Positions 331 through 13,910 of a stretch of DNA of 13,910 nucleotides are shown here, in pieces. The notes beneath the pieces were generated by a model that made no database searches, was not told the DNA's origin, and saw nothing but the letters and a program-made list of their open reading frames with translations. A program made the position numbers and the translations under genes. The DNA is taken from contig JAISTN010000071.1 of NCBI GenBank assembly GCA_031272565.1, positions 1-13,910 on the forward strand, given 5' to 3'. Source of the DNA: Bifidobacteriaceae bacterium (GTDB taxonomy: Bacteria; Actinomycetota; Actinomycetes; Actinomycetales; WQXJ01). Each line of letters opens with the position of its first letter. The first letter of the stretch is position 1.

Positions 331-3300
331 ATGCCTTCGTCTTTGCGCACCTCGGTGGCGGAGATCGCTGATCTGACTCCGCTACAAGCCGGTATGTTGC
401 ACCACCGGCTGGACAACCCTGCCAGCCGGGCCTACGTGTTGCAGTGGCGGATCAGGTTGCTGGGGCAGGTTGACGCGGAGCGGGTCCGCCAAGCCCTGGG
501 ATTGCTGGCCCGACGGCATGACGCCCTGCGGCTGGCCTTCACCATCCCACGGGGCTCGGGCAGGCCACGGCAGGTGATCCTGACTGAACGCCAGCCCACC
601 TGCGAGGTGCAGGACATGAGCCAGGTGCCGGCAGACGAACTGCCGGCCCGGTTGGACCAACTCGCCCGTGCGGATATTGACCGCGGCTTCGACCTGGCCA
701 AGGACCCGTTGATGCGGGTGACGCTGATACGGACCGGGCCCCAGTCAACCGAAACCCTGTGGTGCTTCCACCACCTGGTGATAGATGGCTGGTCGCTCCA
801 GTTGGTGATCGCAGACTTTGTCCGCTTCTTCGAAGCCCTGGCCACGACCCCGCTGCCGGCCCTGACCGCGCAAGTGCGGCGGGAGGCCGCCGCCTACCCT
901 GGCTTTGGTGACTTCCTGCGCTGGGCGGCCGGCCGCGACCAGAGCGCGGCACTGGACTTCTGGCGCGACACCTTGTCTGGCTATGAGGAGGCCGCCCGGG
1001 TGCGGCCCTTGGCCCGGCCGGCCGCCACCACCGACCAGGTCAAGGCCATCACACTGGCCTGCCCGCCAGCCACCTGCAACGCCCTGAAGCGGCTGGGAGC
1101 CGTCAGTAGTGCCACCATGTCCAGCGTGGTGACCGCAGCTTGGGGGCTGTTGCTGGCCCGCTATGCGCGGCGCGAAGACGTGGTGTTTGGCCGGGTGGTG
1201 TCCGGCCGGGACGGCGACCTGCCCGGCGTGGAACGGCTGGTGGGGCCACTGATCAACACTGTCCCAGCCCGCGTGCGGTTTAGCCCCACCACCACCGTGC
1301 GCCAGGTGCTGCGCGAGTTCCAAGCCCAAGTGGCGGCTGCCACGGCCCATGACCACGCCCCGCTGGCGGCCATGCACCGTTTCACGGCCGCCGGGGCCGA
1401 CTTGGTCACCACCCTGGTGGCGTATGAAAACTACCCTGCAGACGCGGCCGCAGGGCTGGTGGGAGGCTTCGAGACCCAGAGTGTCAGCGCCGCCGAACAA
1501 ACCATCTACCCCCTCAACCTGCGGGCCGTTGGCCCTGAAAAGCTGGACCTGTTGTATGACCCACGGGTCTACGAGGAAGGCGAGGCGAAGGCCCTGATCG
1601 AACGACTAGTTCATCTGCTGGGCCAGATGGCCGCCAACCCAGACGGGCTGGTGGCTGAGCTTGACCTGGTGCCGCCGGCCGAACGCGCCTTGGTGCTGGA
1701 CCAGTTTGGCAACGGTGGGCCACCGGCGACACCCTTGGCCCCCACCCTGCATGGCCTGCTGGAACACTGGGCCCGGCAGACGCCTGACGCGCCGGCCCTG
1801 CTGTGGCGCGGTGAAAGCTGGACGTTTGCCCAGTTCAACGCCCGCGCTAACCAGTTGGCCCGGGCGTTGGCGGACCAAGGCGCGATGCCCGGCCGGCCGG
1901 TGGGTCTGTTGATGCGCCGCGGGCCGTACCAGGTAGTGGCCCAATACGCCTGCGCCAAAGCTGGTGCCCCCTGGGTGCCAATGGACCCAGACTACCCGCC
2001 GGACCGGGTGGCCACCCTTGTGGCGGACTGTCAACCGGCGCTGGTCCTGGCGAGTGGCGTCACGGCACCCGCGCTAGCTGGGGTGCCGGTGGTGGACCTG
2101 GAGTCGCTGGACCTGGCAGCCTTGCCCGCCAGCGACGGGCTGGCCCAGGTGGCGCCCGATGACGTGGCCTACATCATGTACACCAGCGGTACCACCGGGC
2201 AGCCCAAGGGCGTCATGGTGGAGCACCGGAACATCGTCAACTACGTGTCTCACCTGCGCGAACAGTGGCGGCCTGGACCGGACGACGTCATGACCCTGAC
2301 CACTAATTACACCTTCGACGCCTCCTTGCTGGAGCACGGCTTGGGTCTCCTCGCAGGCCGTCCCACGTGTCTGCTGCCGGAACTGACCACGCTGCCGGGC
2401 CGCGCTCTGCGTGACTACCTGGAGGCCCACCAGGTGACCTGGGCGTTCTTCAACCCCGCCTTCTTTATGCAGGCCGAACTACCGCCGCGGCTGCGGCGGA
2501 TCTTCACCGGGGGAGCGGCCGCCAGCCCGGAACTGGTAGCCAAGGCGCTGCGCCATGGCCGGTGGGTCAACGCCTATGGCCCCACCGAGATTGCCGTGGT
2601 GGCGGCCGAATGGGAAGCGCCTGTGGACCAGCCACTGCCGGACGTGATCCCGATAGGCCGGCCCATCGCCGGCGCCAAACTGACGGTGCTGGACGGTGAC
2701 CGCTTGTGCGGCATCGGGCTGCCCGGCGAACTGTGTATTGGCGGGGCGGGCGTAACTCGGGGCTACCTGGGTCAGCCGGAACTGACGGCCCGTGCCTTTG
2801 TCGAACTGCCAAGCGAGCCAGGCACCGCGTCTGGACCGCACGGCCGGGTCTACCGCAGCGGTGACCTGGTCGCCTGGCGGGCGGACGGCCAGTTGGTTTA
2901 TCTGGGCCGGATTGATGACCAGGTCAAGATTCTTGGCCACCGGATCGAACCAGGTGAGGTCGCGGCGGCGATTCAGGCCCACCCCGCGGTGGTTGATGCA
3001 GCAGTGGTAGTGGATGACGTGCCTGCCCTGCACGGCTTCTATGTGGCACCCGCCGCGGTAGAGCCGGCCCAGGTACGGGCCCACTTGGCGGCCGGCCTGC
3101 CGCATTACATGGTGCCGGCCAGTTTGACCCGGCTGGCGCAACTACCGGTGGTGGCGGCCACCCATAAGGTCGACCGAGCGGCCCTGCTGGCCCAGGTGCC
3201 CCACTTCGAGGCCACCGGCCGGGCGCCAGCCACAGCCACCGAACTGGTGGTGGCGGCGGTTTTCAGCGAAGTGCTCCAAGTGCCGGCCGTGGGCGCCACC

Positions 3301-4710
3301 GATTCGTTCTTCGACCTAGGCGGTGATTCGCTCAAGGCCATCGCCATTGCCACCAAACTGGGCGCGGCCGGCCTGGACGTCACGGTGCATGACATTTTTG
3401 CTGGTCAGACGGTGGAAACGCTGGCCGGACGGCTGAACGCGCAGGCGGCCAGGGCTGGTGTCCCCCAGGTGGCGGCCGGCAGGCCGGCGGCCACCCCAAC
3501 TGGACAGGCGGCCACGCCGGCCGGGTCGGCGCCGGCCAGCCGGTCCGGACCAGCACCGGCAGCGAGCGATCAATTGTTGAGTCAGGCCGAGGCGGCGTTC
3601 GCGGTCTACGCCGCCGCCAGCCAGCTTAGCCAGCCCCAGGCCGAATACCCCCTGACCGACGGCCAGCGCCTGTCCCGGCTGATTGGCGCCAACGCCTCAT
3701 ACGCCATCGTGCCGCTGGACCGGCCCTATGACCCGGCCCTGTTCACGGCGGTGTGGCGGGCCATCCAGGCCGACCACGCCGTGCTCAGGGCACGGCTAAC
3801 CGACTGTGACACCTTGGCGGTAGGGCCGGTGCCGGCCGCCCCCATCCCGGTGGTCGACGTGACCGGTCTAACCGCGGACCAGGTGGTCAAGCTGGCGGTG
3901 GACGCGGCCAGCCGGGCGGCCGCCAACTTCGGGGAGCAGGCCACTGGATTGGCCCACCGCCTGGCGGTGCTGTGCGCGCCGGACCGCTTCTGGGCAGTGA
4001 TACCGCTCAGCCACCTGGTGTTTGACGCCTTCTCATCCCAGGTGCTGGCAGGCCGCCTGACCCAGGACTACCTGGCCGGCGCCCCTGCCCACCAACCGTA
4101 CGACTACGCCGCCTACCTGGATTTCCTGGCCGCCGGGCCGGCCGGCGTGACCGACCAAGATGTGGTGGCAGCGCTTGATCTGCCCGCCTTTGCCGCCGCC
4201 GCTAGGACCTGGCGGCCCCAACCGGCCCCCCTGGCTCAGGTCACAGCGGCAGCGGGTGATGACCCAACTGGCACCGCTTGGGGACTGATCCAGACTGCCT
4301 TCGAACGGGCCTTTCCCGGGCAGGCCGTGCCCGCCCTGCTGGTCCACACCGGCCGGGTCTACGAGGGTTTCGATTTTACCGGCCACCTGGGCGAGTTCCT
4401 GGACGTCCTGCCAGTGGTGATTGGGCCCGGCGGCTCCGGGCCGGGGGGACACACGGCCAAACTGGCCTACCTGCGTCAACATCGCCTGGTCGCCAGTTCC
4501 CTGCTGGCCGGCCGCTGGGCGGAGCGCCTGCCAGAAGCTACCAGCCTGATCCGGGGCGACCCGGCGGCTTGGCCGGTCGTCAACCTGGTCCTGACGCCCG
4601 TCGATCCGGGCCACCTTCCCGCTGCCTCATTCCAACACGGGCCACCGCGTGTGGTCACGGCCTATCTGACCGGCTCAAGGTTGAAACTGATGGGTTTACC
4701 TGCGGTCTAG
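331..4710 (+). CDS. Non-ribosomal peptide synthetase, C-A-T-C* (protein 1)
   Basis: This 1459-residue cytoplasmic megasynthase activates one amino acid, loads it on a carrier and condenses it with an upstream donor. Domains by residue: condensation 14-450 (HHLVIDG at 147-153), adenylation about 471-955, carrier about 966-1038 (LGGDSL, Ser1000), Ala/Pro linker about 1039-1105, and a degenerate condensation-like domain 1106-1459 (SHLVFDA at 1227-1233). The first domain is of the D-donor type, and the 14 residues before it are placed like an acceptor communication segment. That supports ATG 331 as the start, although no good ribosome binding site is seen. There is no thioesterase. The gene ends with TAG at 4708-4710 and the next NRPS starts 44 bases later, so the two are probably co-transcribed. 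The NRPS assignment is certain; the product and assembly order are not. Confidence 0.97.
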   Translation: MPSSLRTSVAEIADLTPLQAGMLHHRLDNPASRAYVLQWRIRLLGQVDAERVRQALGLLARRHDALRLAFTIPRGSGRPRQVILTERQPTCEVQDMSQVPADELPARLDQLARADIDRGFDLAKDPLMRVTLIRTGPQSTETLWCFHHLVIDGWSLQLVIADFVRFFEALATTPLPALTAQVRREAAAYPGFGDFLRWAAGRDQSAALDFWRDTLSGYEEAARVRPLARPAATTDQVKAITLACPPATCNALKRLGAVSSATMSSVVTAAWGLLLARYARREDVVFGRVVSGRDGDLPGVERLVGPLINTVPARVRFSPTTTVRQVLREFQAQVAAATAHDHAPLAAMHRFTAAGADLVTTLVAYENYPADAAAGLVGGFETQSVSAAEQTIYPLNLRAVGPEKLDLLYDPRVYEEGEAKALIERLVHLLGQMAANPDGLVAELDLVPPAERALVLDQFGNGGPPATPLAPTLHGLLEHWARQTPDAPALLWRGESWTFAQFNARANQLARALADQGAMPGRPVGLLMRRGPYQVVAQYACAKAGAPWVPMDPDYPPDRVATLVADCQPALVLASGVTAPALAGVPVVDLESLDLAALPASDGLAQVAPDDVAYIMYTSGTTGQPKGVMVEHRNIVNYVSHLREQWRPGPDDVMTLTTNYTFDASLLEHGLGLLAGRPTCLLPELTTLPGRALRDYLEAHQVTWAFFNPAFFMQAELPPRLRRIFTGGAAASPELVAKALRHGRWVNAYGPTEIAVVAAEWEAPVDQPLPDVIPIGRPIAGAKLTVLDGDRLCGIGLPGELCIGGAGVTRGYLGQPELTARAFVELPSEPGTASGPHGRVYRSGDLVAWRADGQLVYLGRIDDQVKILGHRIEPGEVAAAIQAHPAVVDAAVVVDDVPALHGFYVAPAAVEPAQVRAHLAAGLPHYMVPASLTRLAQLPVVAATHKVDRAALLAQVPHFEATGRAPATATELVVAAVFSEVLQVPAVGATDSFFDLGGDSLKAIAIATKLGAAGLDVTVHDIFAGQTVETLAGRLNAQAARAGVPQVAAGRPAATPTGQAATPAGSAPASRSGPAPAASDQLLSQAEAAFAVYAAASQLSQPQAEYPLTDGQRLSRLIGANASYAIVPLDRPYDPALFTAVWRAIQADHAVLRARLTDCDTLAVGPVPAAPIPVVDVTGLTADQVVKLAVDAASRAAANFGEQATGLAHRLAVLCAPDRFWAVIPLSHLVFDAFSSQVLAGRLTQDYLAGAPAHQPYDYAAYLDFLAAGPAGVTDQDVVAALDLPAFAAAARTWRPQPAPLAQVTAAAGDDPTGTAWGLIQTAFERAFPGQAVPALLVHTGRVYEGFDFTGHLGEFLDVLPVVIGPGGSGPGGHTAKLAYLRQHRLVASSLLAGRWAERLPEATSLIRGDPAAWPVVNLVLTPVDPGHLPAASFQHGPPRVVTAYLTGSRLKLMGLPAV
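370..1680 (+). other. Condensation domain, D-donor (DCL) type, protein 1
   Basis: Residues 14-450. It forms a peptide bond between an upstream carrier-bound chain and the residue loaded by this protein. Core motifs seen: LTPLQAGMLHH near the start, RGFDLAKDPLMR at 118-129, the catalytic HHLVIDGWS at 147-155, SGRDGDLPGVERLVGPLIN and YENYP at 365-369. The RGFDL..D..MR, HH...DGWS and F/YENYP signatures match DCL domains such as that of SrfA-C as I remember it, and differ from the LCL domains in protein 2. Such domains accept donors ending in a D-residue. No module lies before it on this protein, so the donor must come from another protein that ends in an epimerization domain. Confidence 0.8.
1741..3195 (+). 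other. Adenylation domain A1 (protein 1), loosely Tyr-like code
   Basis: Residues about 471-955. It activates the amino acid as an aminoacyl-AMP and loads it on the adjacent carrier. Motifs: YTSGTTGQPKG at 617-627 (A3), FDAS at 662-665 (A4), NAYGPTE at 747-753 (A5), YRSGDL at 841-846 (A7) and GRIDDQVKILGHRIEPGE at 859-876 (A8). The A10 motif is unusual, THKVDR instead of NGKVDR, but Lys946 is kept. The pocket by eye is D663, A664, L667, F706, F725, G727, A748, V756, V757, K946, that is DALFFGAVVK. From memory it agrees at eight of ten places with the Tyr code DALVTGAVVK. An aromatic or hydrophobic residue is the cautious reading. Confidence 0.85.
3226..3444 (+). other. Peptidyl carrier domain T1 (protein 1)
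   Basis: Residues about 966-1038. The phosphopantetheine-bearing Ser1000 (codon 3328-3330) lies in FFDLGGDSLKAI. GGDS rather than GGHS at this site is typical of carriers placed before epimerization domains or donating across protein junctions. Here the following domain is not a normal epimerase. Confidence 0.92.
3445..3645 (+). other. Ala/Pro-rich interdomain linker (protein 1)
   Basis: Residues about 1039-1105 are rich in Ala, Pro, Gly and Ser, and no fold is recognisable for the first 40 or so. It joins the carrier to the C-terminal degenerate condensation domain. It is longer than the carrier-to-C joints in protein 2 (about 15 residues), so the last domain is loosely tethered. Confidence 0.7.
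3646..4707 (+). other. Degenerate condensation-like domain at the C-terminus of protein 1
   Basis: Residues 1106-1459. It opens with YPLTDGQ, a condensation-type first motif, then AIQADHAVLRARL. The active-site motif is SHLVFDAFS (1227-1235) instead of HHxxxDG: the second His (1228) and the Asp (1232) are kept, the first His is Ser and the Gly is Ala. GHLGEFLDVLP (1351-1361) stands where C domains usually have GxFxNTLP. From that motif to the stop there are about 95-105 residues, against about 155 in C2 of protein 2, so the last strand and helix seem to be missing. It could be an active C domain of a divergent subfamily, a release domain, or an inactive docking piece. It is not a heterocyclization domain, since the first Asp of DxxxxDxxS is absent. 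Confidence 0.75.
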
Positions 4711-4740: not shown

Positions 4741-4746
4741 GAAGGA
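4741..4746 (+). promoter_or_regulatory. Ribosome binding site of NRPS protein 2
   Basis: GAAGGA lies eight bases before the ATG at 4755, which is good spacing. It fixes the start of protein 2 and contrasts with the absent site before protein 1. The 44-base gap from the TAG of protein 1 has no hairpin or T-run, so no terminator separates the genes. Confidence 0.75.
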
Positions 4747-4754
4747 TGCTTATC

Positions 4755-7700
4755 ATGTCTAATTCCACCGACGCTCCAACCAAGACCCAACTCAACATCC
4801 CCTTGGCGTTACTGGAAGGACTGGCCGGCCAGGCCGGCCCCATGATCCCCTCTGGGCCCGATGGGTTGCCGTTGGCCGCCCTGGCGCTGAGCGCCGCCTT
4901 GATTCAGTTCAGCCAAGACCGAACCGGCTTTACCATCGCCCTGACTGGGTCCGGCGAAACCCAGGCCGCTGCCGTTGACCTGGATCCGGACCAGCCACTG
5001 GGCGCCGGCCTAGCCAGCCTGGCCGCCGGTCTGGCCCCAATCCAGGCAGGCGCCGAACCACCGGAGGCCTGGGTCACCTGGGACCAGCCGCGGCCGGAGA
5101 GCGCAGTGGGTCGCCTGCACCTGGACTGGGCGGTCGCTGGCGACCAGGCCACGGTTACCCTGACCGGTGATGACGCCATCTACGAATCCCGCCAATTAAC
5201 CGTTTGGGGCTGGCACCTGGCCGAACTGGCCCGCTCCTGGCGGGCCAGTCCGGCCACACCGGCGGGCCGCCTCAACCTGGTCAGCCAGGCCGAATGGGAC
5301 GCCATCGGGCAGGTCAACGACACCGCTGCCCCCTTCAGTCCACTGACCATTCACGGCCGGGTCAGTCAGACGGTGCGGCGCTACCCGGACAGCATCGCCC
5401 TGGTGGACGCCCAAGGCCAGTTGACCTTTGCTGAAATGGAAGCCCAGGCCAACCGGTTGGCGCGGCGGTTGCAGGGCAGCGGCATTGGGCGCGGGCAAAC
5501 AGTAGGCCTGATGCCAGCCCGTGGGGCCACCCTGGTGATCGCCATGCTGGGGGTGCTGCGGTCCGGGGCGGCCTTTGTGCCGCTGTCACCTGCCTGGCCG
5601 CGCGAACGGGTGGACTTTGTCCTGGCCGATTCGGGTGCCGCCGCCCTGCTGGTGGGCAGCCCAGCCTTTGACTTTGGGCCTCCCGGCCTGCTGCGGGTCG
5701 ACCTGACCGAAGCGTCCACCTGGGAGGCGGACGCGGAGCCGCTGGAGGAAGCCACCACGCCGCAGGACCTGTGCGCGGTGATCTATACCTCCGGCACCAC
5801 CGGTCTGCCCAAGGGAGTCCGGGTGCGCCACGACACGATTGTCAACTACGGCGAGTTCAACCACACCGAATGGCCCATCGAACCCAGCGACGTCATCACC
5901 CAGTTCGCGCCATTTACCTTCAGCACCGCCATCCTGGAGATCACGGCCCCGCTGTTCAGTGGCGCCCGGCTGGTCTGCGTGGCGGATGAGGTGATTGCCG
6001 ATCCGCGCCAGTTCATTGGCGCCATGGCGGCCAACGGTGTGACCATTGTGCTGGCCCCACCGGAGTACGCCCGCTACCTGGTGCCGCTGCCCACCTTGCG
6101 CATCCTGGAAACCGGCGCCTCGCCCTGCCCGCCGGAACTGTCCGCCAAGTTTGCCGGCCAACTGCTGCACGTCAACGCCTACGGTTTGACCGAGGTGGCC
6201 GTGCCGTTGGTGTGGCATGGGGCCAAAGACGGCCAGGTGCCGCGCCGGGTGCCGATTGGCCGGCCGGTCCCCAACACTCAGGTCAGGGTAATGCGGGGCG
6301 ACACCGACTGTGGCCTGTATATGCCAGGTGAAATCCGGGTGACCGGCATCAGCGTCTCGGACGGCTACGTGGGCCACCCTGACCTACAGGCTGAACGCTT
6401 CATCCCTTGGGCTGGGGATGGCCTAATGATGCGGACGGGCGACATCGGCTGGTGGAACGCCGATGGCGACATCGAATACTTGGGCCGGGCGGACAACCAA
6501 ATCAAGATCCGCGGCCAGCGGGTGGAACTGGAAGAAGTGGAACGCCTGATGGCGTCCCTGCCTTACGTTGAGACGGCTGGCGCCATCGCCCGCCATGAGG
6601 TCACCACCAACCTGACCGAACTGACAGGCTTCGTGGTGTCGATGGCGCCTCTTGACCTGAAGCGCCTGCGTCAGGACTTGGCGGCCCGCATGACCAGCGC
6701 CATGGTGCCCTCCCGCCTGGTTCAGATCGAAACCCTGCCATTGACGCCCAACGGCAAGCCGGACCGTAAGGCTCTGGCCACCCTGGCGGAGGAGGGCGAA
6801 CCGCCACCTGAGGAGCCTTCTCTACCAAGTGAAACCGAACGCTTGGTCCAACAGGCTTTCCAGGAGGCGCTGGGCAGCCCGGTGGAGGTGACGGACAGTT
6901 TTTTCGACCGGGGCGGTCACTCGCTGACGGCCACGTGGGTGATCAACCGCCTGGAAGAATTGACTGGCCAGCGCCTGGCACTACTTGATCTGTTCGAGGC
7001 GCCCACGCCGGCCCAGTTGGCGGCCCGGTTGACGGCCGGGGCGGCCCCGGCCGCCCAGATCGCCTCGGTGGGCGGACCGGGCGACTACCCGCTGACCGCT
7101 ACTCAGCGCCGGCTATGTGTCATTGAGGGCTTTGGCAACGCCGGGGTGGCCTACAACATCCCCGCCTTGGTTGAGTTGAGCGCCAAGGCTGATCCAGTCC
7201 GGGTGCGGCAGGTCTACGCCCAGTTGGTGGAGCGCCATGAGGGTCTGCGGACCAGCTTCCCGTTGGTTGACGGCGAACCGGTCCAGCGGATCGAGGCCTC
7301 CGCGCCGGCCGAACTGGCAGTGATCGACCTGACCGGTACGGGGCCACTGGATGCCCAGCAGGCGGCCGACTTGGTGACCAGTTTCGGCCGGCCGTTCGAC
7401 CTGACGCGGGCCCCTTTGGCCCGGCTGGCCCTGGTGCGGCTGAGCGACGGGCCGGACTACATCTTGTACGACATTCACCATTTGGTGGCCGACGGCACCT
7501 CGATTATGACCCTGCTGAGCGAGTTCGCGGCGTTGTATGAGGGCCGCGAATTGGAGCCTGTGCTGGCGCAAGCCAAGGACTATGCCGCCTATCTGGCTGC
7601 CCAGGATACGGCAGCCGATCAGGCCTACTGGCTGGAGCAGTTGGCCAGCCCGCCATCACCGCTGGACTGGCCCACGGATTTCCCACGCCCGGCGGTGGTG

Positions 7701-10700
7701 GGCTTCGAGGGTGACGCGGTCACTGTGCACTTGCCGCCGGCTTTCCGCCAACTGGTGGGGGCCTACGCCGCGCGGCGCGGCGCCACCGACTTCATGGTGC
7801 TGGCGGCAGTGGCCTTTGCTCTGCTGGGCCGGCAAGGCCGGGCGGATGACATTGCGCTGGGTACGCCGGTGGCCGGGCGGACCCACCGGGCGGCTGAGCA
7901 CCTGGTGGGCATGCTGGTCAACACGTTGGTGCTGCGGGCCCAGCCCCGTCCGGACATGACCTTTGACGCCTTGGTGAACCAGGTGCGGAACGCTACCCTT
8001 GGGGCGCTGGAACACCAAGCCTATCCCTTTGATGAATTGGTGGACCAGGTGACCACGGGACGTGACCCGTCCCGCCATCCGCTGTTTGATGTCTCGTTCG
8101 CCCTGCGGAACTTTGACCCGGCCAGGCTGGTGCGGGGCGGCAGCGTGGCCCGGGAGGTACCCGTACGCCTGCCGGTGTCCAAGACTGACCTTAGCCTGAC
8201 TCTGACACCCACGGCCGATGGCGGCTACGACCTGGAAGTGGAATACCGCACCGACCTTTGGCGGCGGTCCACCGCCCAGGCGTTGGCGCAGCACTTCGCG
8301 GTGCTGGCGGCTCACGCGTTGGAGGCTCCAGAGACCGAATTGGGGCGGCTGTCAGTGTTGGATGAGGCCGAACGGGAGTTGGTGCTCAATGAGTTCAACC
8401 GGCCGGCCGCTGGCGGGGTTGGTGACGGAATGGCGGCCGATGTCGTCTCTGGGCCCGACAGTCCACCGGCGGCTCCGGCAGGGCACGGCGGCACCGTGAT
8501 TGGCGCCATCGCCGCCCAGGTGGTGGCCGACCCGGCAGCTACCGCCCTGCTGTGGCGCGGCCAGCCGATCAGCCGGGGCGAACTCTGGCGCCGGTCCAGC
8601 CACTTGGCCGCTGACCTGCGTAAAGGCGGCGTTGGCCGGGGCGATCGGGTGGCTTTACTGGCGCAGCGCGGCCCGGAGTTCGTGGTCGGCACGGTGGGCA
8701 TCATGCTGGCCGGGGCGGCCTTCGTGCCGCTTGACTCGGCTTGGCCCGCGGCCAGGTTGCAGAGCCTAGTGGCAGACGCTGCCCCCAAGGCGTTGGTGGT
8801 GTATGGCACCGCGCCGTTGACGGGCTTTGGTGGACTGGTCCTGGACCTGGGTGACCCGGCCCTGACCGCCGGGCCGGCCCCGTCCGTGACACCGGTCAAC
8901 CAACCGGACGACCCGATCTACTGCTTGTTCACCAGTGGTACCACCGGCCAGCCCAAGGCCGCGGTCATGCGGCACCGCGGGGTCCTGGCGGTCTGCCTGG
9001 ATCGGATGACCTGGGAGCTTTGTGCCGCCGAACCGCAGATCACGGGCTGGACCGTCACCAGCACCTTCGATATGTCAGCCCATCAAATGCTGGGTTCCTT
9101 GGTCCAGGGCGCCACCATGGCGTTGGCTGGACCCGATGATGTGGCCTCGCCGGGGGCTTTGGCCGCCTGGTTGTCCCAATCCGGTGTCACCTCCCTGGTT
9201 GAGGTGCCGGCCAAAGTTGCCGCCATGCTGGCAGAGGCCCCGGACTGCCTGAAGGCGCTCAAGGTCTTGCTACTTGGTGGTGAGGTCCTGGAACCGAACT
9301 TAGCCCGGCTGGTATTGGAGCGCGGCCCGGCTAGATTGTGCAACGCCTACGGGCCCACCGAAACGTCGATCTTCTCCTCCGGGCAGTGGGTGACCGACCC
9401 GGACGACATCACGCTTGGACCGCCGATGGCCGCCGCCCTGTACTACGTACTGGACGGCCTGGAACCCTGCGGTGTCACCATGCCCGGCGAGTTGTGCATC
9501 GGTGGCGACGTGGTGGGAGCGGGCTACCTTGGCCGGCCCGAACTGACCGCCCAACGCTTTGTGCCCAACCCGTACGGGCCCGGGGTGTTGTACCGCACCG
9601 GCGACCTGGCCCGCTGGCTGCCGGACGGTCGGGTTGACTTCCTAGGGCGGGTCGACCGGCAGATCAAGATCAGGGGCCTGCGGATTGAACCTGGCGAAAT
9701 CGAAGCCACCATCCAAGCCGTGCCGGGGATGGAGCAAGCCGCCGTGGTGCTCCACCGCCAGGGAGCAGACCAACTGTTGGTGGCCTATGTGGTGGGCAGC
9801 GCCGATGAGGCTGTGGTGCGCCAGCACTGCGCCGAACAGTTGCCGCGCTATATGGTGCCCAACGCGATTGTGTTCCTGGAGCGGTTACCCGTGACGGTGC
9901 GAGGCAAACTCGACCGGGCCGCCCTGGCGGCCCGGCAGCTGCCCCGGGCGCAGAGCGGCGGGCAGGCCCCGCGTGATGCCTTGGAGGCGGCGGTGGCCGG
10001 TGCTTTCGCCGAGGCCCTGGGTCACGCCGTGGGCGTGGAGGATGACTTCTTCGCGGCTGGCGGCCATTCGCTACGGGCCATGCGCCTGACCGCTCGATTG
10101 GCACAGCAGATTGACCGCCCAGTGGACCTGTTGGATGTCTTTACGCACCCCACTGTGGCTGGACTGGCCGGGCTGCTCAGGGAGCGGACCGAACAGGCGA
10201 CCAACCCAATCAAGCCGGCCGGTGGACCTGGCGCCTACCCGATGGCTGGCCCGCAGCGGCGGCTGTTCGCCCTCGACCAGATTGATGGCGGCGCCCCGGT
10301 TTACAACATGCCGGCCGCGGCCCGGCTGCCGGGCGGGGTGGACGCTGAGCGCTTGGAAACCGCCTTCGCTGCCCTGGTGAAGCGCCATGAGGTCCTGCGG
10401 ACGGGCTTCGAGGTGCGTGACGGCGAACCGTTCCAAGTGGTCTATCCGCCGCAGGCGGTGACCCCGAAGGTGGAGCTGCTGGATGATGCTGGAGCCACGC
10501 TGGAGCAGGTGGCCGCCCGCTTTGTGCGGCCGTTTGACCTGGCCGCGCCGCCTCTAGTCCGTCTCGGTTTGGTGTCAGCCGGCTTGCCGGACGGTTCTGG
10601 GGTGCCCGATGGCGTCCCGGTGCTACTGTTTGACGCCCACCACATTGTCTGTGACGGCTGGACCATGCGCCGTCTGGTGGTGGAACTCGCCGCCTTGTAT

Positions 10701-13700
10701 GAGGGCACGGAGCTACCGCCGGTGGCGGTGCACTACAAAGACTGGTCTCAGCACCAGGCCGGCCTGGACCTGTCCGCGGCAGCGGACTACTGGCTGGAGC
10801 AGTTCGCCGATGGCGGCCCCAAGGCCGGTCTGGTCACCGACTGGCCGCGGCCGGCACAGCAAGACTTCGCAGGTGCGACCATCACCACCACCCTGGACAT
10901 GGGGACGCGCCGCCGGCTGGGCGAGGCGGCGGCGGCCGGTGGGGCCACCGAGTACATGGTGGCCTTGGCAGCCTGGGCCGCCCTGCTGGCCCGCTACACC
11001 CGCAGCGAGGACGTGGCGGTTGGCACCGCGGTGGCCGGGCGGACCACCGCCGGCGCGCAAGACGTGGTGGGCATGCTGGTGGCTACCCTGGCGCTGCGCC
11101 TGCGGCCGGAAGGTGGGTTGACGTTTGCTGGCCTGGTCGAACAGGTCAGGGAAGTAGTGCTGGCCGCTCAGCGTTACCAGGACTATCCCTTTGAGGACTT
11201 GGTGGCGGCACTGGGGCCGGCCGTACGCGACACGGCGCGCAATCCGCTGTTCGACACCATGTTCGTGTTCGAGGCCGATCCGCCGTTGAGCTTTGTGTTG
11301 GACGGCCAACCGGCACAGCCACTGGCCCTGACCCAGCCGATCGCCAAATTCGACCTCAGTTTGACCATGTTGGGCCGGGGGGACGGCTACGAACTTGGCC
11401 TGGAATACGCCACGTCCCTGTTTGGGCCGGTCACCGCTGCCCGCCTGCTGCACCACTACCAGGTGTTGTTGCAGGCCGCCCTGGCCAACCCGGACGCCAC
11501 CCTAGCGGAGCTGAGCGAGGTAGACGCCGCTGAGCGGTCTCAACTGCTGGAAGAGTTGGCTCCCGGGCCGAAAGGCCCTCCGGAAACCACTCTGGCCGCC
11601 CTATTCGGCGCCCAGGTGGCGGCCCGTCCGGAAGCCACAGCGGTGGTGGCCGATGACGCGACCTTGACCTACGGCGAACTGGACACCTGGGCGGCTGCCT
11701 TCGCTGCAGCCCTGGGCGAGGTGGGCGCAGGCGACCGGGTGGGCATCGCCCTGCCGCGGTCCGCCTGCCAGGTGGCGGCCATCTTGGGGGTGGTCAAGAC
11801 CGGGGCTGCCTGGCTGCCGCTGGAACCCAGCCTGCCCGCCGCGCGGCTGGCGGACTTGGTGTCGGACGCCCAGCCGGTGGCCGTAATCGGCGATGCGGCT
11901 GGCCCGGTGCGGCCGTTGCCGGGTGGTCGCCTGATCGACGCCTTCACAGTTGCCAGGACCGGGCGGTTCGTCGAGCGGGAACTCGACCCCGCAGCCGACC
12001 TGTACTGCCTGTACACCAGCGGTACCACCGGCAGGCCCAAGGGGGTAGTGGTGACCAACCGGGGCTTGGCCGCACTGCACCAAACCCACCGGGACTGGTT
12101 GGGCGTTGGGCCGCAGGACACGGTGCTGGGCTACGCCAGCCCGGCCTTTGACGCCTCGGTCTGGGAATTGGTGATGGCGCTGACCAACGGAGCCACCTTG
12201 CGCCTGGTGCCCCCTGGACGGACCGCCGACCTGGCGTGGCTGAACCAGTGCCTGGCCGCCGGGGTCACGGTTGCCACCTTGCCGCCGGCCATCTTGACCC
12301 GGTTGGACGTGGCGCCCTTGCGGCTGGTGATTTCGGCCGGCTCCGGCGCCCACCCGGTGGACCGCCTGGGCGGGCAGTTCGTCAACGCCTACGGCCCAAC
12401 CGAAACCACGGTCTGCACTACCCTGTGGCGCCGGCCGGAGGCGGACAGCGCGTGGCCCGTTCGCATCCCGATTGGCCGGCCGCTGCCGGGGACCACCGTC
12501 TACGTGGTGGATCAAGACTTGCGGTTGACCGGCCTGGGGCGGCCGGGCGAATTGCTGGCTGCCGGGCCGTCGTTGGCGCGGTGCTATCACGGCCAGCCGG
12601 AGTTGACCGGCCAGACCTTTGTCACCAACCCGTTTGGGCCGGGCCGCGTCTACCGGACTGGTGACCTGGTGCGCTGGAACCAGGCTGGCGAACTTGAGTT
12701 CCTGGGCCGGGTTGACCGGCAGTTGAAGATCAACGGCGTCAGAGTGGAACCCGGCCAAGTGGAGGCGATGCTGCGCCAGCAACCAGATGTTGAGGATGCC
12801 TATGTCACCGGCGTGGCGGCCGATGGCGCCCCGCCGGCGTTGGTGGCTTACGTGGTGGGAGCACCGGACCTGGAGCCGTTGGCATTGCGCACGGCCTTGG
12901 CGGGCGAACTGCCCGCAGCGGAGGTGCCAAGTGCGATAGTCGTCCTAGATGCCCTGCCGCTGAACGCCTCTGGCAAGGTTGACGAGGCTGCCTTGCCCAG
13001 GCCCGGGCGTGCCGAGGCAACGGCGAATGGCGAACTGGAAGGGCCCGCTGAGGTGGCCGTGGCGCAGGCCTTCGCCGCCGCTCTGGAACTGGACGCCGTA
13101 GGGCCGGAGTCTGATTTCTTTGCGTTGGGCGGCGATTCGATTGCGGCCATTAGCGTGGTGGGGGCGGTGCGCCAGGCTGGTTACGAGGTTAGCGTGGGCC
13201 AAGTCCTGTCAGCCCGGACCGTGCGGGCTTTGGCGGCGCTAGCCAAGGCGACCGGGCCGGCCGGTTTCGACATGGCTGTGGCCAGCGGACCGGAGTTCGC
13301 CTTGACGCCAATCCAGCAGCGCTTCTTTGCCCACCAGATGCCCCAGCCGAACCACTTCAATCAGCACGTCTGGTTGACAGGGGCGTTCGATCCTGCCGCG
13401 TTGCGGGCGGCCCTGGCCGCCGTGGTTGAGCGGCATGACCTGTTGCGGGCCGGTTTCACGCCGGCTGGTGGGCGGATTGAGCCCGCGGGATCGGTTGAAC
13501 TGCCGCTGACTGTACTGGAACCAGGTGCTTCGCAAGACCAGGTGGCTCAAGCTGCGGCGCGGCTGCAGGGCAGCTTGGACCTGACCTGCCCGCCACTGCT
13601 GGCGGCCCTGTTGGTGCCCGGCGGAGCTAGGTCTGCCGCCGGAGAACTGGCCGCTGACGAGCCGGAGGGCAGTGAGACAGCGGCCGCTGGGCCGGACGCC

Positions 13701-13910
13701 TTGTTGATGGTGGCCCACCACCTGGTTGTCGACGCGATCTCGTGGCGGGTGCTTGGGGAGGACTTGGACCTGGCTTACCGCCAGGCAGCCAAGGGTCGTG
13801 ATCCGGTTCTGGGTACCGGGACAGCGGCTTTTGGTGTTTGGACGGCCCGCCTGGAAGCGGCGGCCGCGGCCGGTGAGTTCGAACCTGAAGTCAAGTACTG
13901 GGTGGACTTG
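4755..13910 (+). CDS. Non-ribosomal peptide synthetase, half-C-A-T-C-A-T-C-A-T-E (protein 2, incomplete)
   Basis: The frame is open from ATG 4755 to the window edge, 3052 codons with no stop; the C-terminus lies outside. Domains by residue: C-terminal half of a condensation domain 11-188, A2 195-680, carrier 690-762 (Ser723), C2 776-1212, A3 1245-1728, carrier 1738-1812 (Ser1772), C3 1826-2265, A4 2277-2750, carrier 2760-2832 (Ser2795), and the start of an epimerization domain from 2846. It carries three extension modules. The first activates a substrate that probably lacks a standard alpha-amino group (no Asp235). The second is of unknown specificity. The third activates Phe and should convert it to D-Phe. 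C2 and C3 are ordinary LCL domains with intact HHxxxDG. It follows protein 1 by 44 bases, so an operon is likely. More modules or a thioesterase may follow. Confidence 0.97.
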   Translation, partial: MSNSTDAPTKTQLNIPLALLEGLAGQAGPMIPSGPDGLPLAALALSAALIQFSQDRTGFTIALTGSGETQAAAVDLDPDQPLGAGLASLAAGLAPIQAGAEPPEAWVTWDQPRPESAVGRLHLDWAVAGDQATVTLTGDDAIYESRQLTVWGWHLAELARSWRASPATPAGRLNLVSQAEWDAIGQVNDTAAPFSPLTIHGRVSQTVRRYPDSIALVDAQGQLTFAEMEAQANRLARRLQGSGIGRGQTVGLMPARGATLVIAMLGVLRSGAAFVPLSPAWPRERVDFVLADSGAAALLVGSPAFDFGPPGLLRVDLTEASTWEADAEPLEEATTPQDLCAVIYTSGTTGLPKGVRVRHDTIVNYGEFNHTEWPIEPSDVITQFAPFTFSTAILEITAPLFSGARLVCVADEVIADPRQFIGAMAANGVTIVLAPPEYARYLVPLPTLRILETGASPCPPELSAKFAGQLLHVNAYGLTEVAVPLVWHGAKDGQVPRRVPIGRPVPNTQVRVMRGDTDCGLYMPGEIRVTGISVSDGYVGHPDLQAERFIPWAGDGLMMRTGDIGWWNADGDIEYLGRADNQIKIRGQRVELEEVERLMASLPYVETAGAIARHEVTTNLTELTGFVVSMAPLDLKRLRQDLAARMTSAMVPSRLVQIETLPLTPNGKPDRKALATLAEEGEPPPEEPSLPSETERLVQQAFQEALGSPVEVTDSFFDRGGHSLTATWVINRLEELTGQRLALLDLFEAPTPAQLAARLTAGAAPAAQIASVGGPGDYPLTATQRRLCVIEGFGNAGVAYNIPALVELSAKADPVRVRQVYAQLVERHEGLRTSFPLVDGEPVQRIEASAPAELAVIDLTGTGPLDAQQAADLVTSFGRPFDLTRAPLARLALVRLSDGPDYILYDIHHLVADGTSIMTLLSEFAALYEGRELEPVLAQAKDYAAYLAAQDTAADQAYWLEQLASPPSPLDWPTDFPRPAVVGFEGDAVTVHLPPAFRQLVGAYAARRGATDFMVLAAVAFALLGRQGRADDIALGTPVAGRTHRAAEHLVGMLVNTLVLRAQPRPDMTFDALVNQVRNATLGALEHQAYPFDELVDQVTTGRDPSRHPLFDVSFALRNFDPARLVRGGSVAREVPVRLPVSKTDLSLTLTPTADGGYDLEVEYRTDLWRRSTAQALAQHFAVLAAHALEAPETELGRLSVLDEAERELVLNEFNRPAAGGVGDGMAADVVSGPDSPPAAPAGHGGTVIGAIAAQVVADPAATALLWRGQPISRGELWRRSSHLAADLRKGGVGRGDRVALLAQRGPEFVVGTVGIMLAGAAFVPLDSAWPAARLQSLVADAAPKALVVYGTAPLTGFGGLVLDLGDPALTAGPAPSVTPVNQPDDPIYCLFTSGTTGQPKAAVMRHRGVLAVCLDRMTWELCAAEPQITGWTVTSTFDMSAHQMLGSLVQGATMALAGPDDVASPGALAAWLSQSGVTSLVEVPAKVAAMLAEAPDCLKALKVLLLGGEVLEPNLARLVLERGPARLCNAYGPTETSIFSSGQWVTDPDDITLGPPMAAALYYVLDGLEPCGVTMPGELCIGGDVVGAGYLGRPELTAQRFVPNPYGPGVLYRTGDLARWLPDGRVDFLGRVDRQIKIRGLRIEPGEIEATIQAVPGMEQAAVVLHRQGADQLLVAYVVGSADEAVVRQHCAEQLPRYMVPNAIVFLERLPVTVRGKLDRAALAARQLPRAQSGGQAPRDALEAAVAGAFAEALGHAVGVEDDFFAAGGHSLRAMRLTARLAQQIDRPVDLLDVFTHPTVAGLAGLLRERTEQATNPIKPAGGPGAYPMAGPQRRLFALDQIDGGAPVYNMPAAARLPGGVDAERLETAFAALVKRHEVLRTGFEVRDGEPFQVVYPPQAVTPKVELLDDAGATLEQVAARFVRPFDLAAPPLVRLGLVSAGLPDGSGVPDGVPVLLFDAHHIVCDGWTMRRLVVELAALYEGTELPPVAVHYKDWSQHQAGLDLSAAADYWLEQFADGGPKAGLVTDWPRPAQQDFAGATITTTLDMGTRRRLGEAAAAGGATEYMVALAAWAALLARYTRSEDVAVGTAVAGRTTAGAQDVVGMLVATLALRLRPEGGLTFAGLVEQVREVVLAAQRYQDYPFEDLVAALGPAVRDTARNPLFDTMFVFEADPPLSFVLDGQPAQPLALTQPIAKFDLSLTMLGRGDGYELGLEYATSLFGPVTAARLLHHYQVLLQAALANPDATLAELSEVDAAERSQLLEELAPGPKGPPETTLAALFGAQVAARPEATAVVADDATLTYGELDTWAAAFAAALGEVGAGDRVGIALPRSACQVAAILGVVKTGAAWLPLEPSLPAARLADLVSDAQPVAVIGDAAGPVRPLPGGRLIDAFTVARTGRFVERELDPAADLYCLYTSGTTGRPKGVVVTNRGLAALHQTHRDWLGVGPQDTVLGYASPAFDASVWELVMALTNGATLRLVPPGRTADLAWLNQCLAAGVTVATLPPAILTRLDVAPLRLVISAGSGAHPVDRLGGQFVNAYGPTETTVCTTLWRRPEADSAWPVRIPIGRPLPGTTVYVVDQDLRLTGLGRPGELLAAGPSLARCYHGQPELTGQTFVTNPFGPGRVYRTGDLVRWNQAGELEFLGRVDRQLKINGVRVEPGQVEAMLRQQPDVEDAYVTGVAADGAPPALVAYVVGAPDLEPLALRTALAGELPAAEVPSAIVVLDALPLNASGKVDEAALPRPGRAEATANGELEGPAEVAVAQAFAAALELDAVGPESDFFALGGDSIAAISVVGAVRQAGYEVSVGQVLSARTVRALAALAKATGPAGFDMAVASGPEFALTPIQQRFFAHQMPQPNHFNQHVWLTGAFDPAALRAALAAVVERHDLLRAGFTPAGGRIEPAGSVELPLTVLEPGASQDQVAQAAARLQGSLDLTCPPLLAALLVPGGARSAAGELAADEPEGSETAAAGPDALLMVAHHLVVDAISWRVLGEDLDLAYRQAAKGRDPVLGTGTAAFGVWTARLEAAAAAGEFEPEVKYWVDL
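4785..5318 (+). other. C-terminal half of a condensation domain at the N-terminus of protein 2
   Basis: Residues about 11-188. There is no HHxxxDG motif and no N-terminal lobe. The segment IPLALLEGLAGQAG followed by an Ala/Leu helix and DRTGFTIALTGSGE corresponds to the start of the C-terminal lobe of C domains. The tail, LHLDWAVAGDQATVTLTG then WGWHLAELARSW and LVSQAEWDAI, corresponds to the last strand, last helix and exit linker. The GxFxNTLP segment between them seems deleted. The piece cannot catalyse condensation alone. It contains the strand and helix that the C-terminal domain of protein 1 appears to lack, so a complementing interface is possible. A vestigial relic is the plain alternative. 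Confidence 0.65.
5337..6794 (+). other. Adenylation domain A2, pocket without Asp235
   Basis: Residues about 195-680. Complete core motifs: YTSGTTGLPKG at 344-354, NAYGLTE at 474-480 (Leu for the usual Pro), RTGDIGWW from 560, GRADNQIKIRG from 577, and NGKPDR at 666-671 with Lys668. The A4 region reads FTFSTAILE where FDASVWE is usual, so the Asp that binds the alpha-amino group is Ser390. The pocket by eye is S390, T391, L394, L433, L451, T453, A475, V483, P484, K668. Loss of that Asp is known in domains that activate aryl acids, hydroxy or keto acids, or some beta-amino acids. I do not name the substrate. With conserved catalytic motifs the domain is probably active. Confidence 0.88.
6822..7040 (+). 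other. Peptidyl carrier domain T2 (protein 2)
   Basis: Residues about 690-762. FFDRGGHSL places the phosphopantetheine site at Ser723 (codon 6921-6923). GGHS is the usual context for carriers that feed an LCL condensation domain, and C2 follows about 14 residues later. Confidence 0.92.
7080..8390 (+). other. Condensation domain C2, LCL type (protein 2)
   Basis: Residues about 776-1212. Motifs: YPLTATQRRL near the start, AYNIP at 799-803, VERHEGLRTSF, intact HHLVADG at 908-914, GTPVAGRTH and VGMLVNTL from 1051, and RHPLFDVSF. These are LCL signatures (L-donor, or an achiral donor). It joins the unit on T2 to the residue on T3. Confidence 0.88.
8487..9938 (+). other. Adenylation domain A3, unrecognised code (protein 2)
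   Basis: Residues about 1245-1728. Motifs: FTSGTTGQPKAAV at 1392-1404, where the Gly after the Lys is Ala; FDMSAHQ at 1438-1444; NAYGPTE at 1530-1536; YRTGDL; GRVDRQIKIRG; and RGKLDR with Lys1718. The pocket by eye is D1439, M1440, H1443, V1482, L1506, G1508, A1531, I1539, F1540, K1718, that is DMHVLGAIFK. The amino-binding Asp is present, so an alpha-amino acid is expected, but I do not recognise the code. A longer Gly/Pro/Ala-rich linker (about 1213-1248) precedes it. Confidence 0.88.
9966..10190 (+). other. Peptidyl carrier domain T3 (protein 2)
   Basis: Residues about 1738-1812, with DDFFAAGGHSLRAM and the phosphopantetheine site at Ser1772 (codon 10068-10070). The GGHS context fits the LCL domain that follows. 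Confidence 0.92.
10230..11549 (+). other. Condensation domain C3, LCL type (protein 2)
   Basis: Residues about 1826-2265. Motifs: YPMAGPQRRLFAL, VYNMP at 1849-1853, VKRHEVLRTGF, intact HHIVCDGW at 1962-1969, GTAVAGRTT, VGMLVATL, YPFEDLV and ARNPLFDTMF. The LCL signatures match an L-configured donor from T3. It adds the Phe carried by T4. Confidence 0.88.
11583..13004 (+). other. Adenylation domain A4, phenylalanine code (protein 2)
   Basis: Residues about 2277-2750. Motifs: YTSGTTGRPKG at 2420-2430, FDASVWE at 2465-2471, NAYGPTE at 2544-2550, YRTGDL, GRVDRQLKING, and SGKVDE with Lys2741. The pocket by eye is D2466, A2467, W2470, T2508, I2526, A2528, A2545, V2553, C2554, K2741, that is DAWTIAAVCK. 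This is the classical phenylalanine code, one conservative change from gramicidin synthetase A. Phe is the confident prediction, and the epimerization domain downstream agrees with D-Phe. Confidence 0.92.
13032..13250 (+). other. Peptidyl carrier domain T4, epimerase-associated (protein 2)
   Basis: Residues about 2760-2832. FFALGGDSIAAI puts the phosphopantetheine site at Ser2795 (codon 13137-13139). GGDSI is the context known for carriers that precede epimerization domains, which matches the next domain. Confidence 0.92.
13290..13910 (+). other. Epimerization domain, N-terminal part (protein 2, cut by window edge)
   Basis: Residues 2846-3052 so far, about half of a usual E domain. LTPIQQRFF at 2850-2858, HFNQ at 2867-2870 and HHLVVDAISWRVLGEDL from 2988 are epimerization signatures, distinct from the C domains here. 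The motif ends DA rather than DG, which I believe occurs in other E domains. An acidic, Ala-rich insert of roughly 20 residues (about 2957-2979) precedes the HH strand. It should convert L-Phe on T4 to a D/L mixture from which a downstream DCL domain takes D-Phe. Confidence 0.88.

What the first reader, a model, noticed from the sequence alone, without database searches (positions are those of the whole stretch)
5337..6794. Complete A domain that lacks the alpha-amino-binding Asp235
Seen: A4 reads FTFSTAILE, so the usual Asp is Ser390, while the P-loop, A5, A7, A8 and Lys668 are intact; the pocket is STLLLTAVPK. Known: Asp235 anchors the alpha-amino group, and domains without it tend to use aryl, hydroxy, keto or beta-amino acids. 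Inference: this module incorporates a non-standard building block. Its position right after a half C domain would suit a chain-initiating acid, followed by LCL domain C2.
Basis: partly seen in the sequence, partly recalled or inferred. Interest (0 to 1): 0.75.

Follow-up and report, generated by a model that had tools for sequence, protein, structure and literature searches.

The report
Starter enzyme for a non-standard acid
A peptide-making enzyme from an uncultured bacterium probably starts its chain with a module whose substrate pocket lacks the part that normally grips an amino acid, and five relatives keep the same odd pocket, so their products probably begin with an unidentified acid that is not an ordinary amino acid.

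Summary
A2 (window 5352-6788) has Ser at GrsA position 235 (codon 5922-5924) and no Asp within ten residues, so a small shift cannot restore it. P-loop, A7, Lys517 and carrier Ser are present. Among 240 listed proteins five relatives (44-61% identity) carry the identical code. The six form one clade (support 1.0) among 638 A domains; 27 of 34 pocket columns do not vary (one a shared gap), against 6 and 15 of 34 in modules 2 and 3 of four of these synthetases. All six begin with only the C-lobe of a condensation domain (weak match; P0045 may be cut), so this is best read as a starter. A second mark agrees: the A5 proline is absent in 6 of 6, absent in 8 of 8 background domains without Asp235, present in 609 of 663 with it. 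Best reading: a working starter A domain for an acid without an alpha-amino group, perhaps amine-bearing and gripped by Ser235/Glu299. Substrate unknown; no structure could be computed. A Ser235 starter and a truncated loading-module C domain each have a precedent in print; this code was not found.

The parts
4746..13910 (+). g2: NRPS gene, half C-A2-T-C2-A3-T-C3-A4-T-E; cut by the contig end inside the E domain
4746..5300 (+). half C: C-terminal lobe only, no HHxxxDG
   Evidence: matches positions 371-441 of a 446-position C profile, E 4.5e-6 in a search of 11 sequences
5352..6788 (+). A2: adenylation domain with code STLLEGAVPK
5922..5924 (+). Ser at GrsA position 235 (g2 residue 393)
6108..6110 (+). 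Glu at GrsA position 299 (g2 residue 455)
6186..6188 (+). Leu in place of the A5 proline, GrsA position 325 (g2 residue 481)
6204..6206 (+). Pro at GrsA position 331 (g2 residue 487), 0 of 676 in the background
6756..6758 (+). Lys517 (g2 residue 671)
6843..7031 (+). carrier (T) domain of module 1; Ser at 6921-6923
7083..8381 (+). C2, complete, HHLVADG
8502..9941 (+). A3, code DMHELGAIFK or DMHVLGAIFK depending on the alignment
10233..11549 (+). C3
11598..13001 (+). A4, code DAWTIAAVCK (Phe-like)
13293..13904 (+). N-terminal part of an E domain, cut by the contig end
331..4710 (+). g1: NRPS gene, C1-A1 (DALFFGAVVK)-T-terminal C/E-like domain; probably acts after g2

Best explanation
A2 is a functional, chain-initiating adenylation domain of a conserved family (code STLLEGAVPK). 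It activates one particular carboxylic acid without an alpha-amino group, loads it on its carrier domain, and C2 joins it to the next residue. Loss of Asp235 and of the A5 proline mark a non-alpha-amino substrate; a pocket that stays fixed while the other modules diverge marks a fixed starter. Less sure: Ser235 and Glu299 grip a polar or cationic group elsewhere on the acid, as in an aminobenzoate or an omega-amino acid. Shown: sequence, clade, pocket conservation, half C. Inferred: activity, starter role, order g2 then g1, substrate class.
For: Identical ten-residue code in six proteins down to 44% identity, one clade with support 1.0 of 638 domains. 27 of 34 pocket columns invariant (one a shared gap) against 6 and 15 of 34 in modules 2 and 3 of four synthetases. 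Catalytic motifs and carrier Ser present. Half C without HHxxxDG in all six. A5 proline absent in 6 of 6 clade members, absent in 8 of 8 background domains lacking Asp235, present in 609 of 663 with it; in StsA the corresponding residue is Met and the change to Pro abolished activity (section 2.5 of PMC11253843). A hydroxyl at or near 235 goes with aminobenzoates: EntE N235S, as told in PMC11356792, and Thr221 of AuaEII.
Against: No measured substrate and no structure. The Phe domain McyG has Val in place of Asp235, so loss of the Asp does not prove a non-amino acid. 54 of 663 Asp235 domains also lack the A5 proline, and some of the 8 non-Asp domains are close kin. The half-C matches are weak, and P0045 does not begin with Met and may be cut. 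The residue of PosA at position 299 does not touch its substrate. C1 of g1 lies nearest to N-terminal C domains (14 of 25), which may also mean that g1 starts a chain.
Confidence: 0.7

Rival explanations
1. A2 still activates an alpha-amino acid; the amine is held by backbone carbonyls or by Glu299 instead of Asp235.
For: McyG activates Phe with Val at that place (passage of PMC11253843); the closest solved structures by sequence are alpha-amino-acid domains (linear gramicidin synthetase and others).
Against: The A5 proline is lost as well, in all six members; the Asp is conserved in 670 of 679 background domains.
Confidence: 0.15
2. A2 activates an alpha-keto or alpha-hydroxy acid, as in depsipeptide synthetases or as proposed for the Ser235 module of Pseudanabaena galeata.
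For: Loss of the A5 proline as in StsA; the authors of PMC11356792 propose a hydroxy or carboxy acid for their Ser235 starter.
Against: Known domains of this kind have Ile, Ala or Gly at 235; Pfam shows no ketoreductase in g2 and A2 is 479 residues against a median of 488, so nothing is inserted; Glu299 has no counterpart there that I know of.
Confidence: 0.2
3. A2 activates a beta-amino acid in the manner of VinN.
For: Thr236 is bulkier than Ala; the loop after A5 is one residue shorter than in the Phe domain A4.
Against: VinN keeps the Asp. The short spacing also occurs in many Asp235 codes: of 39 domains with spacing six, 33 are outside the clade.
Confidence: 0.06
4. A2 is a decayed domain that is loaded in trans or skipped.
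For: It lies behind a broken C domain.
Against: Motifs intact, and the pocket is more conserved than those of modules 2 and 3.
Confidence: 0.05

Closest known systems
Pseudanabaena galeata OA858_03905 module 1 (PMC11356792)
   Same: Chain-starting A domain with Ser at 235, Lys517 kept, and a pocket identical in three other cyanobacterial proteins, as told there
   Different: Its code is SIFHSGICM; no half C is described; substrate not measured either
StsA A domain, alpha-ketoisocaproate (cereulide-type synthetase)
   Same: Asp235 and the A5 proline both replaced
   Different: Ile at 235 instead of Ser; works with a ketoreductase, which g2 lacks
ThdA loading module, thermoactinoamide (PMC7253712)
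   Same: Loading module behind a truncated, probably inactive C domain
   Different: Its A domain has an ordinary Leu code with Asp235
DhbE and EntE aryl-acid domains
   Same: No Asp at 235 in DhbE; EntE N235S is reported to bind 2-aminobenzoate
   Different: DhbE has Asn235, a cis-Pro shift and an A5 motif unlike NAYGLTE
VinN-type beta-amino-acid domains
   Same: Non-standard acid; bulkier residue at 236
   Different: They keep the Asp, which binds the beta-amine

Membership tests
NRPS adenylation domain (general) | AMP-binding fold over the Pfam cut-off | tested here: met
   PF00501 236.3 bits, cut-off 29.9
NRPS adenylation domain (general) | P-loop, A7 and Lys517 | tested here: met
alpha-amino-acid-activating A domain | Asp at 235 | tested here: not met
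   Ser, in all six relatives
alpha-amino-acid-activating A domain | Proline in A5 (YGPTE) | tested here: not met
   Leu or Gln in 6 of 6; but 54 of 663 Asp235 domains lack it too
DhbE-type aryl-acid A domain | Asn235 and an A5 motif as in DhbE | tested here: not met
   Ser235 and NAYGLTE against the description
alpha-keto-acid module | Hydrophobic residue at 235 | tested here: not met
   Ser against Ile in StsA
alpha-keto-acid module | A5 proline replaced | tested here: met
alpha-keto-acid module | Ketoreductase in the module | tested here: not met
   no such Pfam match
VinN-type beta-amino-acid domain | Asp kept at 235 | tested here: not met
VinN-type beta-amino-acid domain | Shortened loop after A5 | tested here: inconclusive
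   spacing also seen with ordinary codes
Starter module with truncated C domain | C-lobe only, HHxxxDG missing, at the N-terminus | tested here: met
   weak scores; P0045 may be cut
STLLEGAVPK clade (this report) | Measured substrate | not testable with these tools
   needs an assay

The most novel reading that the evidence does not exclude
STLLEGAVPK is a new specificity code for a starter acid not yet recorded in nonribosomal peptides, gripped by a carboxylate moved within the pocket from position 235 to 299: Glu299 faces an amine or guanidine far from the alpha carbon, as in an aminobenzoate, 5-aminovalerate or 4-guanidinobutyrate. A family of peptides from uncultured bacteria shares this cap while the other residues vary.
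Probability: 0.3. Interest if true: 0.65.

Novelty: new variant of a known kind. Interest (0 to 1): 0.5.

Why it matters
Predictions of nonribosomal peptides read the pocket code and lean on Asp235, so a conserved code without it is a blind spot. Here the code is identical in six synthetases whose extender codes differ, so one assay on one domain would probably assign the first building block of the whole family. It would also test whether the acidic anchor of an A domain can sit elsewhere in the pocket.

Tried and rejected
Short-loop idea: the spacing between Glu327 and Trp seemed to make A2 a VinN-like beta-amino-acid domain. Of 638 domains 39 have spacing six, 33 of them outside the clade; 389 have no Trp in range. 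Not evidence.

So there was no fold search and no pocket geometry.

Relatives with neighbourhood: a genome-contig scan with the single protein gave five loci of 23-33% identity, not studied; viral contigs gave none; plasmid records gave 2532 records, none at 60% identity or more, and none for the half C. Genome searches with the A2 protein found only the window's own genome: 1 of 18 (family, E 1e-80), 1 of 396 (order, 1e-110), 1 of 394 (class, 1e-100), 1 of 396 (phylum, 1e-100). These sets overlap; searches scored at most four candidates per genome. The six-member clade is a count among the 240 proteins listed and so a lower bound.

Joining contig C337 to g2: both end at the same motif of an E domain, but the printed ends, compared by eye, share no obvious sequence. 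Not claimed.

MbtH in the own genome: 0 of 1; the genome is 69.5% complete.

The code string: 0 papers; codes printed one letter per table cell would escape that search.

Full report
What is there. Two NRPS genes run in the same direction: g1 (331-4710) and g2 (4746-13910, cut by the contig end). Pfam and profile searches give g1 = C1-A1-T-terminal domain and g2 = half C-A2-T-C2-A3-T-C3-A4-T-E with the E domain cut. The finding concerns A2.

Check of the observation. A4 reads FTFSTAILE and its Ser aligns with Asp235 in a profile alignment and in a separate MAFFT alignment. The nearest Asp residues lie 11 before and 21 after; the +5 Glu is the Glu of the motif. The numbering is anchored on A4 of the same protein, whose code DAWTIAAVCK differs from the GrsA Phe code DAWTIAAICK (table in PMC11355689) only at 330. 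P-loop, A7, Lys517 and the carrier Ser are present.

Is it conserved? Two searches of 5.8 billion proteins listed 120 proteins each, 240 in all, the window's own included. Five of the others have this code exactly: P0045 (61% identical), P0099 (55%; named Propionibacteriaceae bacterium by its source), P0084 (49%), P0121 and P0122 (44%; named Peptococcaceae bacterium). If these names are right the family spans two phyla. Of 728 A-domain hits, 90 have incomplete codes and were left out; of the 638 complete ones 624 begin with D, 6 with S (this clade), 5 with V, 2 with H, 1 with I. Among complete codes an acid at 299 occurs in these six and in P0134 (DGQEEGFVDK). Over all hits outside the clade, Ser at 235 is 0 of 679, Glu at 299 is 1 of 664 and Pro at 331 is 0 of 676. 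This background was gathered by similarity to A2 and is not a random sample. In a FastTree of the 638 domains the six form a clade with support 1.0; the A domains of the other modules of the same synthetases join next (the 14-member group has support 0.355, the 15-member group 0.987), so the code may have arisen within this synthetase lineage.

Fixed starter, free extenders. For the four synthetases with three listed A domains (window, P0045, P0084, P0099), module-1 domains are 47-63% identical (mean 54.5) and share 27 of 34 pocket columns, one of them a shared gap; module-2 domains are 35-39% identical (mean 37.4) and share 6 of 34; module-3 domains are 38-52% identical (mean 43.7) and share 15 of 34. 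With P0121 and P0122 added, module 1 still shares 27 of 34. The codes at modules 2 and 3 differ in all four. The 34 positions are a recalled list. The pocket is kept more strictly than the domain as a whole, and more than in the other modules.

Why a starter. The six proteins begin with only the C-terminal lobe of a condensation domain. Matches to a 446-position C profile: window 371-441 (E 4.5e-6), P0084 374-443, P0122 232-274 and 386-442, P0121 233-271 (E 0.047) and 389-443, P0099 388-443, P0045 404-443 (E 5.5e-5); E-values are for a set of 11 sequences. The HHxxxDG motif lies near profile position 135, in the missing lobe. The scores are weak one by one but the pattern recurs. P0045 begins with Leu and may be cut; the window's g2 cannot hold more of the domain, since g1 ends 36 bases before it. 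A truncated C domain before a loading module is known from ThdA (passages of PMC7253712). In a tree of 575 C and E domains, C2 and C3 lie among mid-chain domains; C1 of g1 has 3 of the 4 post-E C domains among its 25 nearest (p 2.8e-4), which with the E domain at the end of g2 suggests that g2 acts first and hands on a chain ending in a D residue. Against this, 14 of the same 25 are N-terminal C domains (86 of 574 in all; p 1.2e-6), which fits either an acceptor from another subunit or a starter C domain. The labels come from position and motif.

A second mark. The review PMC11253843 (sections 2.5 and 2.6 and passages seen) says that the conserved A5 proline of alpha-amino-acid domains is Met in the keto-acid domain StsA and that changing it to Pro abolished activity. 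I asked whether loss of this proline goes with loss of Asp235: of 663 Asp235 domains 609 have Pro and 54 do not; all 8 background domains without Asp235 lack it (Fisher p 3.5e-9, but several of the 8 are kin); all six clade members lack it (Leu in five, Gln in P0099). This supports a non-alpha-amino substrate without using position 235 alone. It is not exclusive: NMYGITE and some YGLTE motifs occur with Asp235.

Which acid? Not determined. A hydroxyl near 235 is linked to aminobenzoates: EntE N235S is said to bind 2-aminobenzoate (section 3.2 of PMC11356792; the primary paper was not seen), and Thr221 of the anthranilate ligase AuaEII bonds to the amine (section 2.6 of PMC11253843). Glu299 could grip an amine or guanidine. 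In PosA an acid residue at another code position does so, and its authors note that such residues may come from different positions; but the PosA residue at code position 5 (299) does not touch its substrate (passages of PMC10522769). Keto and hydroxy acids remain possible, though the known pockets have Ile, Ala or Gly at 235 and g2 has no ketoreductase. VinN-type beta-amino acids are unlikely, since VinN keeps the Asp. McyG, a Phe domain with Val at this place, shows that an amino acid cannot be excluded.

Comparison with the known. Ten paper searches were run. They turned up one Ser235 starter, in Pseudanabaena galeata (section 3.2 and table 1 of PMC11356792 seen), with code SIFHSGICM and no measured substrate. 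STLLEGAVPK is in 0 papers of the held library. So A domains without Asp235, one with Ser235, and truncated starter C domains are known; this pocket and its fixed use at the head of an otherwise varying family were not found described in those searches. Other papers were seen only in passages (PMC11355689, PMC12959268, PMC3849588, PMC12283262, PMC7966384).

Limits. No structure, no measured substrate, no genomic neighbourhood of the relatives, an incomplete genome, and names of metagenome bins taken as written.

Noticed in passing
window 3478-4707: The end of g1 is an unusual C/E-superfamily domain with SHLVFDA in place of HHxxxDG and no Pfam match; in 5.8 billion proteins only one relative was listed, P0242, 48% identical to g1 over 1454 residues. 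It may release the chain.
   Followed up: partly
L007 1-3646 (contig C337 of the same genome): A PLP aminotransferase (best NCBIfam PRK07324, 461 bits, below its cut-off of 476; next GntC and capreomycidine synthase VioD, also below cut-off), a phosphopantetheinyl transferase and a type II thioesterase run towards the C-terminal part of an E domain on the other strand. It may be the other edge of this cluster; the link to the window is not shown.
   Followed up: partly
window 8502-9941: A3 has an uncommon code, DMHELGAIFK or DMHVLGAIFK depending on the alignment; its substrate is unclear.
   Followed up: no
background A domains: In this sample loss of Asp235 always goes with loss of the A5 proline (8 of 8), which might serve as a second flag for non-alpha-amino substrates in code readers.
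   Followed up: partly
P0034 280-769 and P0056 276-765: Two N-terminal A domains of long NRPS proteins carry His at position 235 (code HLRNVGPGIK).
   Followed up: no
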